Source: Halorientalis regularis
GTDB lineage: Archaea > Halobacteriota > Halobacteria > Halobacteriales > Haloarculaceae
DNA length: 64,000 nt
Assembly: GCF_023698535.1 (NCBI RefSeq)
Contig: NZ_JALJCL010000001.1
Coordinates: 124,001 to 188,000, forward strand
Reading direction: 5' to 3'
Under the pieces are notes generated by a model. It did not search any database, was not told the DNA's origin, and saw only the letters and a program-made list of their open reading frames with translations. Position numbers and translations under genes: made by a program. Shown piece after piece: positions 52,475 to 56,875 of the stretch. Position 1 is the first letter of the stretch. Every line of letters starts with the position of its first letter.

Positions 52475-52857
52475 CGCGGCTCGAAGACGAGCAGCCGCTC
52501 CTCGCGCGTGACGGTCTCGCCGACGCCGATGCCGACGACCTGCCCGGTCTCGACGTCCTCGGGGTCGACACCCCGGACCTGGCCGGTGATCGACACCGGA
52601 CCGAAGTCGACGACGGCAGTGACGTACGGGGCGTCCTCCTCGAACTGCGGCGTCGGGACGGTGACGACCGTGTAGGTGCTGATCTCGCCGGAGTCGGGAA
52701 GCGGTTCCTCCGAGAGGTCCTGCGAGCCACACTGCGGGCAGGCGAGTCGCGGCGGGAGCGAGCCGTGGCCGTTCGCACACTCGACGTAGAAGCCCTCGCC
52801 GTCGGCGATGGCGTCGAGCAGGTCGTCGAAGCCCTCGTCGCGCGGTTCGTCACTCAT
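52471..52857 (-). CDS. Zn-ribbon OB-fold acyl-CoA-associated protein (DUF35 type)
   Basis: The 128-residue protein has a rubredoxin-like zinc ribbon (CANGHGSLPPRLACPQCGS) followed by an OB fold (ISTYTVVTVP, APYVTAVVDF). Such DUF35 proteins pair with thiolase-like enzymes and channel acyl-CoA, as in archaeal HMG-CoA synthesis. The ATG overlaps the thiolase stop (ATGA), so the two form an operon. Confidence 0.9.
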   Translation of the reverse strand: MSDEPRDEGFDDLLDAIADGEGFYVECANGHGSLPPRLACPQCGSQDLSEEPLPDSGEISTYTVVTVPTPQFEEDAPYVTAVVDFGPVSITGQVRGVDPEDVETGQVVGIGVGETVTREERLLVFEPR

Positions 52858-54023
52858 TGCTCTACCTCCTGAAGCACGTGGACGGTCGCACTCGCAACGG
52901 TGCCACCCGCGTTGTGGGCGAGGGCGGTCGTCGCACCCTCGACGTCCTCGGCACGGGGGTGACGTTCCTCCAGCAGTTTCGTGATGGAGATGAGCTGGGC
53001 GACGCCCGTCGCGCCGACGGGATGGCCCTTGGCCTTCAGCCCGCCGGAGAGATTGACCGGGAGGTCACCCTCGCGGGTAGTTTCGCCCCGGCTCGCGGCC
53101 CCGATGGCCTCGCCGGGTTCGTACAGCCCCAGTCCCTCCAGTGCGAGCACTTCGGCGATGGTGAAACAGTCGTGGACCTCCAGGAAATCGACGGAATCGG
53201 GACCGATTCCGGCGTCGTCGTAGGCCTCGTCGGCGGCGTCCTCGGTCGCCGGTGTACGCGCGAAGTACTGGCGGTCGTGCAGGGCCATCTTGTCGCCGCC
53301 CTGTCCGGTGCCGGTGACCGCGACGCTGGTATCCAGATCGTGGTCGGCGGCGTACTCCTCGCTGACCAGCACGGCGGCGGTCGCGCCGTCGGTGATCGGA
53401 CAGGAGTCGTACAGTCCGAGCGGGTCGGCGATGGTCGGCGCGTCCAGCGCGTCCTCGGCCGTGATCGCCTGTTGCATCTGGGCGTACTCGTTGGGGAGCG
53501 CGTGTTCGTGGTTCTTGACGGCGATCTCGGCGAGGTCTTCCGTCGACCCGCCGTACTCCTCGAAGTAAGCGCGTGCCATCAGCGCGTACGCGCCGGGGAA
53601 GGTCATGCCGGCGCGGATCTCGTAGAGGTCGTCGGCGGCGATAGAGAGCGCGTCGGTCGCGGCGGCCGTCCCGATGTTGGTCATTCGCTCGGAGCCACCG
53701 ACCAGCACCACGTCGGCCTCGCCCGACCGGAGGCGGAACACGGCGTCCCGGATCGCCGCCCCGCTGGACGCGCAGGCGGACTCGTAGCGCGTCGCCGGCA
53801 CGTCGAGTCCGACGGCTTCGGCCATCAGCGGTGCTTGGTGGCCCTGGTGTTCGGCCAGTTCGCCCATGAAGTTGCCGTAGAAGAGCGCCTCGACGTCGTC
53901 GGGGTCGATCCCGGCGTCGTCGAGCGCGGCCAGCCCCGCCTCGGCGAACATCGCACGCCCTGTCCGCTCGGGGTGCTTGCCGAAGTGGGTGAGGCCGACG
54001 CCGGCTACGCGTGGGTCAGACAT
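52854..54023 (-). CDS. Thiolase-family acyl-CoA acetyltransferase (SCP-x-like)
   Basis: The 389-residue thiolase has the nucleophile Cys84 in ESACASSGAA. A later HDCFTIAE segment lies near residue 285 and NAGGTVASAT near 375. It probably cleaves or condenses acyl-CoA with the DUF35 partner encoded downstream. Catalytic residues match the SCP-x/archaeal acetoacetyl-CoA thiolase group rather than classical thiolase I, but the substrate is not settled. Confidence 0.9.
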   Translation of the reverse strand: MSDPRVAGVGLTHFGKHPERTGRAMFAEAGLAALDDAGIDPDDVEALFYGNFMGELAEHQGHQAPLMAEAVGLDVPATRYESACASSGAAIRDAVFRLRSGEADVVLVGGSERMTNIGTAAATDALSIAADDLYEIRAGMTFPGAYALMARAYFEEYGGSTEDLAEIAVKNHEHALPNEYAQMQQAITAEDALDAPTIADPLGLYDSCPITDGATAAVLVSEEYAADHDLDTSVAVTGTGQGGDKMALHDRQYFARTPATEDAADEAYDDAGIGPDSVDFLEVHDCFTIAEVLALEGLGLYEPGEAIGAASRGETTREGDLPVNLSGGLKAKGHPVGATGVAQLISITKLLEERHPRAEDVEGATTALAHNAGGTVASATVHVLQEVEQ

Positions 54024-54135
54024 CACAACGGCTTACGAGTCGTTCAGCATTTAGGCTTGCCGGTGTGGCCAGTTTTCGCACACGACCGCCGACAGGAAGG
54101 GGCCGAGAGACGGGATGGAAGTGGAGAGGAACCGA

Positions 54136-54354
54136 TCAGTCGAACAGCCCCCCGAACAGGCCGTCGTCCGGGTCAGTGACTTTCTTGCCGGTCCCGAGGG
54201 CGGCCTCTGGCACGTCGGCGACCTGCGTGACCATCGGGAACTCCCCGGTCGGGATCGTCGCGACCTCATCGGCAGTCTCGTACTCGATCACCGAGATCTT
54301 CGCCTCGTTTTTCACCGAGACGAAGGCGTGGTCGCCGTCAGGGGCGTTCGACAC
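54136..54354 (-). pseudogene. 5'-truncated fragment of a beta-propeller (YncE-like) protein
   Basis: The remaining 3' part encodes about 72 residues: SIVSNAPDGDHAFVSVKNEA, then ISVIEYETADEVATIPTGEF, the repeat type of YncE-like seven-bladed propellers, and a tail ending GLFGGLFD. Just before it the frame runs into the left end of the second TnpB element (HPPLKGWA derives from the hairpin). The gene's start and most blades are gone. Confidence 0.72.
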
Positions 54355-54368
54355 GATGCTAGCGGAAG

Positions 54369-54388
54369 CCCACCCCTTCAGGGGTGGG
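54369..54388. repeat. Left-end hairpin of the second TnpB element
   Basis: CCCACCCC, loop TTCA, GGGGTGGG: a perfect 8-base stem. Confidence 0.8.
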
Positions 54389-54453
54389 TGCAAGCGATAG
54401 GCACAGGGCAACAGTCCACCGTCTCGATGCCCGGGCCGTGATTCCCACGCCGA

Positions 54454-54684
54454 CTACCCCTCGTCAACCGGCCACCAGACGACGGCCTGTGCGCCGACCT
54501 TCCATCGCTCCACATCTCCACGCTCTTCCAACTCCTGCAACCGCCGCAACACCGTCCGCTTCCCACAATCCAGCTCCTCAGCCAACACCCGAGCGGTCGC
54601 CACCGGCCGCTCCACCCCATCAAACGCCGCCAACACCCCCTCACACGTCACTTCGCGCGGCCGCCCCATACCATCCTCAGCCAT
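54454..54684 (-). CDS. Winged-helix protein carried by the TnpB element
   Basis: The 76-residue protein (MAEDGMGRPREV) contains helix-turn-helix motifs TARVLAEELDCGKRTVLRRLQEL and a wing ending VVWWPVDEG. Similar small HTH proteins travel with haloarchaeal IS elements. It is divergent from tnpB with about 85 bases between, so it could repress tnpB. ATG 54684 was preferred over ATG 54717 because the latter adds only MFTVTGRVRGG. Confidence 0.72.
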   Translation of the reverse strand: MAEDGMGRPREVTCEGVLAAFDGVERPVATARVLAEELDCGKRTVLRRLQELEERGDVERWKVGAQAVVWWPVDEG

Positions 54685-54769
54685 ACCTCCACGTACTCGT
54701 CCCGTCACTGTAAACACCAGCCCTTCCGCAGCCCTTATGCTTCAGACGTACATACGACATAACACGACG

Positions 54770-56240
54770 ATGGCGGCCCAAACCGAGGAAGAACGCACGC
54801 GCACCAACACCTTCCGACTCGCCCCCGATAGCGAGTGGAAGAAGGTGTGCCTGATCGAACTCCTCGACTCGGCGGCCGCCCTCGTCAACATCGTCACCTA
54901 CCACCGCCGCCAAGCATACTTCAACCCCGACAAGACGCGGGACGACGTCTGGAACGCCATCACCAAAACCGAGATCCGCAACCGCTTCCGACCCACGATT
55001 GGTCGTGCCATCACCGACAAGCTGCTCGACAAGTGCGACGAAACATGGGACGCGTTCTTCACGCAACTCGACGACTACTATGATGGCAACCGGGAGGACA
55101 AGCCCAGTCCGCCCGGTTACTGGAAGGAGGACGACCAGCGGGTGTTGCAAACCGTCGTCCGCAACGACGCCTACACGGTGGAGTGGGGTGAGCGGTCGCG
55201 GATCGAACTCGCTCTTGGAAGTGAGCTAAAGGAGAAGTACGGCATTCCGTTGAATCAGCGTCTCCGCGTCCCCATCCGCGGCAACCCGCAGTACGAGGGG
55301 CACGGTGGTCGGTTGGAACTCGAGTACGACCGCAGCACCGAATCGTTCACGGCACACCAACCAGTCACCTTCCTGCACGATACAACACGGGTCTCGGACT
55401 CCAGCGACGAGGAGTGCGTGGCCGCCGTGGACGTCGGTGCCAACAACTTCGTCGCCGTCACCACAACCAACGGCCACCAACGGGTGTTCCACGCTCGCCC
55501 CCTCTTCGACCGCTTCCACCACATCACGGAACGCATCGCGGACTTGCAATCCCAACTCCCCGACGATGAACACTCGAGTCGGTTGATCGAGAAGCTGTAC
55601 GACCGGCGTCGGCGGCAACGCGACCACGCCCAAGACGCACTCGTCCGCCACCTCGCCCGCCTCTTCGAGGAGCGGGGTGTTGGAGAGGTGTACGTCGGCA
55701 AACTGGATGATGTGCGCGAGGAACATTGGAGCGCGACGGTGAACGAGAAGACGGACTTGTTCTGGGCGCACGGCCGCTTCCGCCAGCGGATGCACGACGT
55801 CCTTGACGGTGAGTGTGGGATCAATGTTGAGGAGGAGTCGGAAGCCGGCACGTCGTCGCGGTGCCCGCGGTGTGGTGAGGAGGAACGTGTTGGACGGAAC
55901 GGGGACGTGTTCCAGTGCGGTGGATGTGGGTTTGAGGGGCATAGCGATGTGGTGGGAAGCGAGAACTTCCTCCACGGGGTGGTGGATGGCGATGTTGAGT
56001 TCGACACCGAAAGGCCGATGGCTCGGCCTGCGGACTCCGGGCAGAACGGCCCCGAGTGGGGACACCGAGGGGTGCCCCGCCTCGAGTGGGACGACCACGA
56101 GTGGCGACGCTGTGATCGTTCGACCAAAGAGGAGCCCGCAAACCGGAGTACCCGTCAGGGGAATCTTGCCTTCGGGGTGTCCCGCTCACCGGAATTACCC
56201 ACGGAGGAATCCCACCCGTTCACGGGTGGGAGGAAGTCAA
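54770..56240 (+). CDS. tnpB: TnpB-like RNA-guided nuclease, open at the element's right end
   Basis: The protein starts MAAQTEEERT. The RuvC core is recognised from AVDVGANNFVAV (first Asp, about residue 219), a HWSATVNEKT segment, zinc ribbon CPRCGEEE/CGGCGFEG, and HSDVVGSENF (third Asp). The expected second acidic site lies in VGKLDDVREE, where Lys occupies the position of the usual Asp. The frame has no stop inside the element and continues to 56764 through the flank. The C-terminal extension (RPADSGQNGPEW onwards) is not a known domain. Confidence 0.75.
56211..56230. repeat. Right-end hairpin of the second TnpB element
   Basis: CCCACCCG, loop TTCA, CGGGTGGG: a perfect 8-base stem with the same loop as the left end. 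Confidence 0.8.
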
Positions 56241-56469
56241 GATCGACTGGCTGGGCGACTACGAGCCCGGCCACGACGGGCCACTGGCACAGCTCACCGA
56301 CCGCCAGCGTGAGGCGCTGGAGACGGCCTACGAACTCGGCTTCTACCAGTCGCCACGGGCGACCAGTTACGAGGAGATCGCGGCGGAACTGGACTGCGTG
56401 CCCAGCGCCGCCAACGACCTCCTCCGACGGGCCGAGGCGGCGCTGGTCGCCACCGTCCTCGACGGCTGA
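56239..56469 (+). pseudogene. 5'-truncated C-terminus of an HTH_10 (Bat-like) regulator
   Basis: About 76 codons remain, reading KIDWLGDYEPGHDG then LTDRQREALETAYELGFYQ. A second helix pair, TSYEEIAAELDCVPSAANDL, completes the HTH_10 DNA-binding domain of haloarchaeal Bat-type regulators. There is no start codon, and upstream the frame enters the right end of the TnpB element. The sensory N-terminal part is missing. Confidence 0.75.
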
Positions 56470-56470
56470 G

Positions 56471-56752
56471 TCACATTCCCATGTCGGCCGCGGCGTCGGG
56501 CACGGGCAGAATCGAGGGCGCGACCCCGAGCAACTCCGCGGCGTGGTCGAGCGCCATGTCGAACCCGTAGTACCGTTCCAGTTCGTCGCCATCGGCCGTC
56601 GGCCGCACCTTCAGCATCGCGTACCCCTCGACGTTCTGGGCGACGGCGGCCGTCGCGCCGTCGCGGTCGAACGCGAGAACGCGCTCGGTGTCGGTCTCGT
56701 AGTAGCGTGCGGTGATCCCATCGGCCGTCACCTCGCTCTCTGCGTCTGGCAT
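56471..56752 (-). CDS. Small conserved haloarchaeal protein, DUF7111-like
   Basis: The 93-residue acidic soluble protein (MPDAESEVTA) includes ARYYETDTERVLAFDRDG, AQNVEGYAMLKVRP and ends VPDAAADMGM. This matches a haloarchaeal family I recall as DUF7111. It shares no obvious function with its neighbours and is convergent with the truncated HTH_10 gene, with one base between stops. Confidence 0.72.
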   Translation of the reverse strand: MPDAESEVTADGITARYYETDTERVLAFDRDGATAAVAQNVEGYAMLKVRPTADGDELERYYGFDMALDHAAELLGVAPSILPVPDAAADMGM

Positions 56753-56875
56753 TACCCCCGCTAGAGCCGTGGGACAGTCGAAGCTGTCGGTTGCGACGCG
56801 TACTCACCGGTCACCGAACGACCTGCGGTGTCGGCCCAGACGGGGCCGGACGGAAGGCGCGTCGACGAGTGGTCG

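What the first reader, a model, noticed from the sequence alone, without database searches (positions are those of the whole stretch)
54136..56469. TnpB element sits between two outward-facing genes that both lost their 5' ends
Left of the element is the 3' part of a propeller gene on the minus strand; right of it is the 3' part of an HTH_10 regulator on the plus strand. Both lack a start, and both frames run into the element. A simple insertion would break only one gene; losing two divergent 5' ends implies a deletion beside the element or recombination between two copies.
Basis: partly seen in the sequence, partly recalled or inferred. Interest (0 to 1): 0.6.

Follow-up and report, generated by a model that had tools for sequence, protein, structure and literature searches.

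The report
Transposon flanked by a one-sided deletion
In a salt-loving archaeon a small TnpB-type mobile element landed in a regulator gene, and a 1.8-kb deletion starting exactly at its left edge then removed the front halves of that gene and of the divergent gene next to it, which probably also locked the element in place.

Summary
A complete IS1341-type (TnpB-only) element, 54353-56240, lies between a 72-aa C-terminal remnant of a beta-propeller gene (minus strand) and a 75-aa C-terminal remnant of an HVO_0513_N/HTH_10 regulator (plus strand). Halorientalis persicus, H. pallida and one unnamed congener carry the intact divergent pair without an element. About 1,780 bp of ancestral DNA is missing, and close copies of the lost parts are nowhere else in the genome. 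The junctions give the history. The right flank (GATCGACTGG...) follows CTGAC in the intact H. pallida regulator, a canonical target. At 30 other left ends of this element type the target is T[G/A]AC; the window's left flank is CGAC, the only exception. So the element inserted into the regulator, and a leftward deletion then fused its left end to the propeller gene (3-5 nt microhomology). Recombination between two copies is disfavoured. A more distant congener (G007) lost the same two 5' ends through a different deletion and has no element, so double truncation alone does not prove an element-linked event. Ordinary in kind (haloarchaeal repeat-mediated or IS-adjacent deletion). The striking points: the deletion ends flush with the left end and probably destroys the excision site/TAM.

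The parts
54136..54352 (-). 3' remnant of a beta-propeller gene (C-terminal 72 aa of about 432; lost residues 1-360); stop at 54136
   Evidence: match 93% aa to residues 361-432 of the intact H. persicus protein; intact gene L023:10040-11338
54349..54352 (+). CGAC, the non-canonical left flank (propeller sequence GTTCGAC) where TGAC or TAAC stands at all other copies
   Evidence: 31 distinct left ends: 27 TGAC, 3 TAAC, 1 CGAC = this one
54353..56240 (+). IS200/IS605-superfamily, IS1341-type (TnpB-only) element, 1,888 bp; only full-length copy in this genome
   Evidence: ends defined against the G010 copy (L065, 1,881 bp, TTGAC|ACGCAGC...GTCAA) and terminal-only copies
54369..54388 (+). left-end subterminal hairpin CCCACCCCTTCAGGGGTGGG
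   Evidence: sequence; conserved in other left ends
54454..54717 (-). small winged-helix protein gene (87 aa as listed) at the left end, divergent from tnpB, where tnpA would normally sit
   Evidence: weak HTH matches below curated cut-offs; 61-69% aa identity in three other full elements
54770..56240 (+). tnpB reading frame; RuvC-II glutamate position is Gly (VYVGKLDDV); no stop codon before the right end, frame open to 56764
   Evidence: Pfam, PDB alignment, comparison with the G010 copy, the ORF listing
56211..56240 (+). right-end hairpin CCCACCCGTTCACGGGTGGG and terminal AGGAAGTCAA (end of the predicted omega-RNA scaffold)
   Evidence: sequence and alignment of right ends; no Rfam family above its gathering score
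56241..56469 (+). 3' remnant of an HVO_0513_N/HTH_10 regulator (C-terminal 75 aa of about 218, the DNA-binding domain); its first ~16-20 nt are the expected TnpB guide
   Evidence: HTH_10 PF04967 E=6.6e-16; H. pallida intact site CTGAC|GATCGACTGGCTGGGCGACTACGA

Best explanation
The ancestor carried an intact divergent pair (propeller gene leftward, HTH_10 regulator rightward), as H. persicus and H. pallida still do. Step 1 (strongly supported): a TnpB-only IS1341-type element inserted into the regulator gene at CTGAC|GATCGACTGG, breaking only that gene. Step 2 (strongly supported as an event): about 1.78 kb to its left was deleted (regulator 5' part, shared promoter region, propeller 5' part), joining propeller sequence GTTCGAC directly to the first base of the left end. 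Mechanism of step 2 (inferred): a break or nick at the TnpA cleavage point of the left end, made in trans by one of the genome's Y1 transposases or arising at the fork near the hairpin, with loss of the left flank and end-joining at GAC(AC) microhomology. Consequence (inferred): the left TGAC, needed for TnpA excision and as the TnpB TAM, is gone, so the element is probably fixed in place while its guide still matches intact regulator alleles. Both remnants are probably non-functional.
For: Intact pair without element in three congeners. No close second copy of the lost propeller or regulator parts in G000, so deletion rather than inversion or translocation. Right flank identical for 24 nt to the intact H. 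pallida regulator, where it is preceded by the canonical CTGAC. 30 of 30 other left ends follow T[GA]AC; only the window has CGAC, and three copies of the same wHTH-tnpB element type checked elsewhere follow TTGAC, TTAAC and ATGAC. Junction microhomology of 3 nt (7% of random breakpoint pairs) to 5 nt (0.9%) if the ancestor had GACAC as in G007. Five Y1 (TnpA) genes elsewhere in G000. Short-repeat deletions are documented as frequent in haloarchaea (PMC3119063).
Against: No allele was found that has the element in the regulator with the left flank still present, so the order of events rests on the junction logic. Microhomology alone does not explain why the deletion stops within a few bases of the left end. 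A cut by TnpA at CGAC would itself be non-canonical. The ancestral G000 propeller base at the junction is unknown (GAGAC in H. persicus and G002, GACAC in G007).
Confidence: 0.77

Rival explanations
1. Two directly repeated copies of the element, one in the propeller gene and one in the regulator, recombined and lost the DNA between them.
For: Would explain why both ends of the element are flush with gene sequence; the right junction is canonical.
Against: Needs an insertion at CGAC, seen at 0 of 30 other left ends. The genome has no second full-length copy. No relative has an element in the propeller gene.
Confidence: 0.1
2. One concerted event: the element was captured into, or inserted during repair of, a break that had already lost about 1.78 kb (a deletion-coupled insertion).
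For: Deletion-coupled insertions are common in Haloquadratum (64 cases, PMC3119063), and insertion of IS copies at deletions without target duplication is reported in bacteria (PMC11708052).
Against: The right junction is an exact canonical TnpA target with an intact right end, expected from ordinary transposition but not from break capture.
Confidence: 0.1
3. The deletion came first, is shared with G007, and the element inserted later into the fused remnants.
For: G007 has both genes truncated at the same locus without an element.
Against: Breakpoints are not nested: G007 keeps about 155 bp more propeller and about 20 bp less regulator. H. persicus and H. pallida, closer to G000 than G007 is, are intact.
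Confidence: 0.02

Closest known systems
Repeat-mediated (microhomology) deletions in haloarchaea, Haloquadratum walsbyi (Dyall-Smith et al. 2011, PMC3119063)
   Same: Deletion with a short direct repeat (4-20 bp there) at the junction, also affecting IS605-type elements
   Different: There the IS605-linked cases remove the element core; here the flank is removed and the element is intact, with 3-5 nt of repeat
Deletion-coupled insertions in Haloquadratum (PMC3119063)
   Same: Unrelated DNA of similar size replaces ancestral DNA at exact positions
   Different: Here the inserted DNA is a defined transposon and one junction is its canonical target
IS-adjacent deletions (for example IS903 and IS150 in E. 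coli, PMC11708052)
   Same: Insertion first, then a deletion starting at the element's end
   Different: Those are DDE-type elements with target duplications; this is an IS200/IS605-type element with ssDNA transposition and no target duplication
IS200/IS605 IS1341-type elements and PATEs of haloarchaea (PMC3119063); ISDra2 (PMC8612924)
   Same: Subterminal hairpins, fixed target oligonucleotide at the left, TnpB, terminal-only derivatives of about 50 bp
   Different: Left target sequence lost; a winged-helix gene sits at the left end; RuvC-II glutamate position substituted

Membership tests
IS1341-type (TnpB-only) IS200/IS605 element | tnpB with OrfB/RuvC and TNB zinc-finger domains | tested here: met
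   PF01385 and PF07282 above cut-off
IS1341-type (TnpB-only) IS200/IS605 element | Subterminal palindromes near both ends | tested here: met
   Hairpins at 54369-54388 and 56211-56230; same in other copies
IS1341-type (TnpB-only) IS200/IS605 element | Fixed short target sequence immediately 5' of the left end (property of the site, outside the element) | tested here: not met
   CGAC instead of T[GA]AC at this copy only. All 30 other sites of the type meet it, and the right flank is canonical; the loss is a later change of the flank by the deletion, so the element itself is still filed here
IS1341-type (TnpB-only) IS200/IS605 element | No tnpA inside the element | tested here: met
   ORFs in the element are tnpB and an HTH protein only; Y1 genes lie elsewhere in the genome
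IS-adjacent or repeat-mediated deletion | Ancestral allele with both flanks contiguous and undeleted | tested here: met
   H. persicus, H. pallida, G002
IS-adjacent or repeat-mediated deletion | Short repeat at the junction | tested here: inconclusive
   GAC certain, GACAC possible; 3 nt occurs in 7% of random breakpoint pairs
IS-adjacent or repeat-mediated deletion | Element present before the deletion | tested here: inconclusive
   No intermediate allele found among the held genomes of the genus; inferred from the canonical right junction

The most novel reading that the evidence does not exclude
A single-strand (Y1 TnpA) transposase acting in trans catalyses one-sided adjacent deletions that begin exactly at the left end of an IS200/IS605-type element and end at a target-like tetranucleotide. 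Such a deletion erases the excision site and TAM and turns a mobile element into a fixed one whose guide RNA still targets the undeleted allele of the gene.
Probability: 0.2. Interest if true: 0.55.

Novelty: new member of a known kind. Interest (0 to 1): 0.33.

Why it matters
It is a clean example of how a TnpB-only element can cost its host more than one gene, with ancestral alleles available for direct comparison. Because the deletion removes the left target motif, it gives a natural test of whether IS200/IS605-type elements and TnpB guide RNAs need that motif to stay mobile or to home. The independent deletion in G007 warns against blaming every double truncation on the mobile element beside it.

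Tried and rejected
Inversion or translocation of the lost 5' parts: no close second copy in G000; the best regulator hit is a 38% paralogue. Deletion shared with G007: breakpoints not nested and tree against it. Functional chimeric genes: the regulator remnant has no usable start, and the propeller remnant has only a TTG 91-aa read-in from the element. Dating by decay: dN/dS in the G000 remnants (0.12-0.17 against H. persicus) is within or near the range of intact pairs, and the fragments are too short to resolve it. Rfam: only a sub-threshold HgcC hit. Literature searches found no report of IS200/IS605 adjacent deletions, but the library is partial.

Full report
What is there. The window is G000:C11:124001-188000 of a 4.03-Mb haloarchaeal genome whose congeners include Halorientalis persicus and H. 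pallida. Between a thiolase gene (52854-54026, minus) and a small conserved gene (56471-56752, minus) lie a propeller remnant, a TnpB element and an HTH_10 remnant. The remnant frames correspond to residues 361-432 of a 432-aa propeller protein and 144-218 of a 218-aa HVO_0513_N/HTH_10 regulator.

Ancestral state. In H. persicus (L023) and G002 (L024) the same neighbours enclose an intact divergent propeller/regulator pair with no element; H. pallida (L089) also has it. From the propeller junction to the regulator junction 1,780 bp are missing by the H. persicus frame and about 1,791 bp by G002; 1,888 bp of element stand in their place. No close copy of the lost propeller or regulator segments was found elsewhere in G000. 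This is loss, not inversion.

Element ends. Comparison with the G010 copy (L065: TTGAC|ACGCAGCGAGCGG...GGGAGGATGTCAA|TCCG, 1,881 bp) and with terminal-only copies of about 50 bp such as L056, L059 and L040 sets the element at 54353-56240. I scanned the family for the left-end motif ACGNNNNNAGCGGAAGCCCAC without any condition on the flank and read the preceding bases of 31 distinct sites: 27 TGAC, 3 TAAC and a single CGAC, which is the window copy. Copies of the same wHTH-tnpB element type in G010, G157 and G042 (the last a remnant) are preceded by TTGAC, TTAAC and ATGAC.

Reading the junctions. The right flank GATCGACTGGCTGGGCGACTACGA is identical to the intact H. pallida regulator, where it is preceded by CTGAC. 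The right junction is therefore an ordinary insertion site in the regulator. The left flank GGGGCGTTCGAC is propeller sequence and is not an accepted target. The simplest history is insertion into the regulator, then deletion of everything from the propeller GTTCGAC to the element's left end. The two sides share GAC, and GACAC if the ancestor had the G007 codon; random breakpoint pairs in this locus give 3 or more shared bases in 7% and 5 or more in 0.9% of cases. One caution: in H. pallida the propeller reads GCGTTGACA at this place, so a TGAC can arise there by a serine-to-valine codon change; but G000 keeps the TTCGA of the other three species, so it does not look like a site that was ever TGAC in this lineage.

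Independent loss in G007. G007 (L006/L022) has the same two genes truncated and fused directly (...GGGTATTTGTCCTCCGAGTCCGGCCACAACGG...), with no element. It keeps about 155 bp more propeller and about 20 bp less regulator than G000, so neither junction can descend from the other by further loss alone. A tree of flanking genes puts G000 with H. persicus (96% split, five taxa) and G007 on a long separate branch. Two independent losses are the parsimonious reading, and the element is not a necessary cause of such a double truncation. The pair seems dispensable: no orthologous propeller was found in G001, G003 or G006.

Mechanism. Shown: the deletion begins within a few bases of the left end, on the left side only, and spares the element. 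Inferred: the left-end cleavage point is where the chromosome broke. TnpA must come from elsewhere; G000 has five Y1 genes, one with an internal stop. Joining could be microhomology-based, as in the frequent repeat-mediated deletions of Haloquadratum (PMC3119063), or a one-sided TnpA strand transfer to the target-like CGAC. The data do not separate these. Homologous recombination between two copies is less likely because it needs an insertion at CGAC.

Consequence (inference). In ISDra2 the left target motif is required for excision and doubles as the TnpB TAM (PMC8612924). If that holds here, the element can no longer leave or re-home at this locus, yet its guide matches intact regulator alleles such as that of H. 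pallida. Whether this TnpB cuts is open: the RuvC-II glutamate position is Gly in this copy and three relatives.

Verdict. Ordinary in kind, with one interesting feature, the flush left end with a lost target motif.

Noticed in passing
54454-54717 (-): A small winged-helix gene occupies the tnpA position of the element and is conserved (61-69% aa) in three other full-length copies (G010, G157 twice); possibly a regulator of the element.
   Followed up: partly
54770-56240 (+): The TnpB RuvC-II glutamate position is Gly (VYVGKLDDV / VYVGELDDV) in all four copies, with a conserved NEK motif downstream that might supply a relocated glutamate.
   Followed up: partly
56140-56764 (+): The tnpB frame of this copy has no stop before the right end and runs on into the flank to 56764, whereas the G010 copy has a stop; the stop appears to have been lost.
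   Followed up: partly
L006:1330-1520 (G007:C15): A species of the same genus lost the same two divergent 5' ends by a different deletion, apparently with microhomology CCGGC and no element; recurrent loss of this gene pair.
   Followed up: yes
G000:C10:21981, G000:C2:70974, L040: Terminal-only copies of about 50 bp (PATE-like) with the same ends and TGAC target, so this element type can be mobilised in trans.
   Followed up: no
G000:C42:200930-201437 and G000:C11:284687-285194: Two elements of about 500 bp with the same kind of left end and a related right end, apparently too short to encode TnpB.
   Followed up: no
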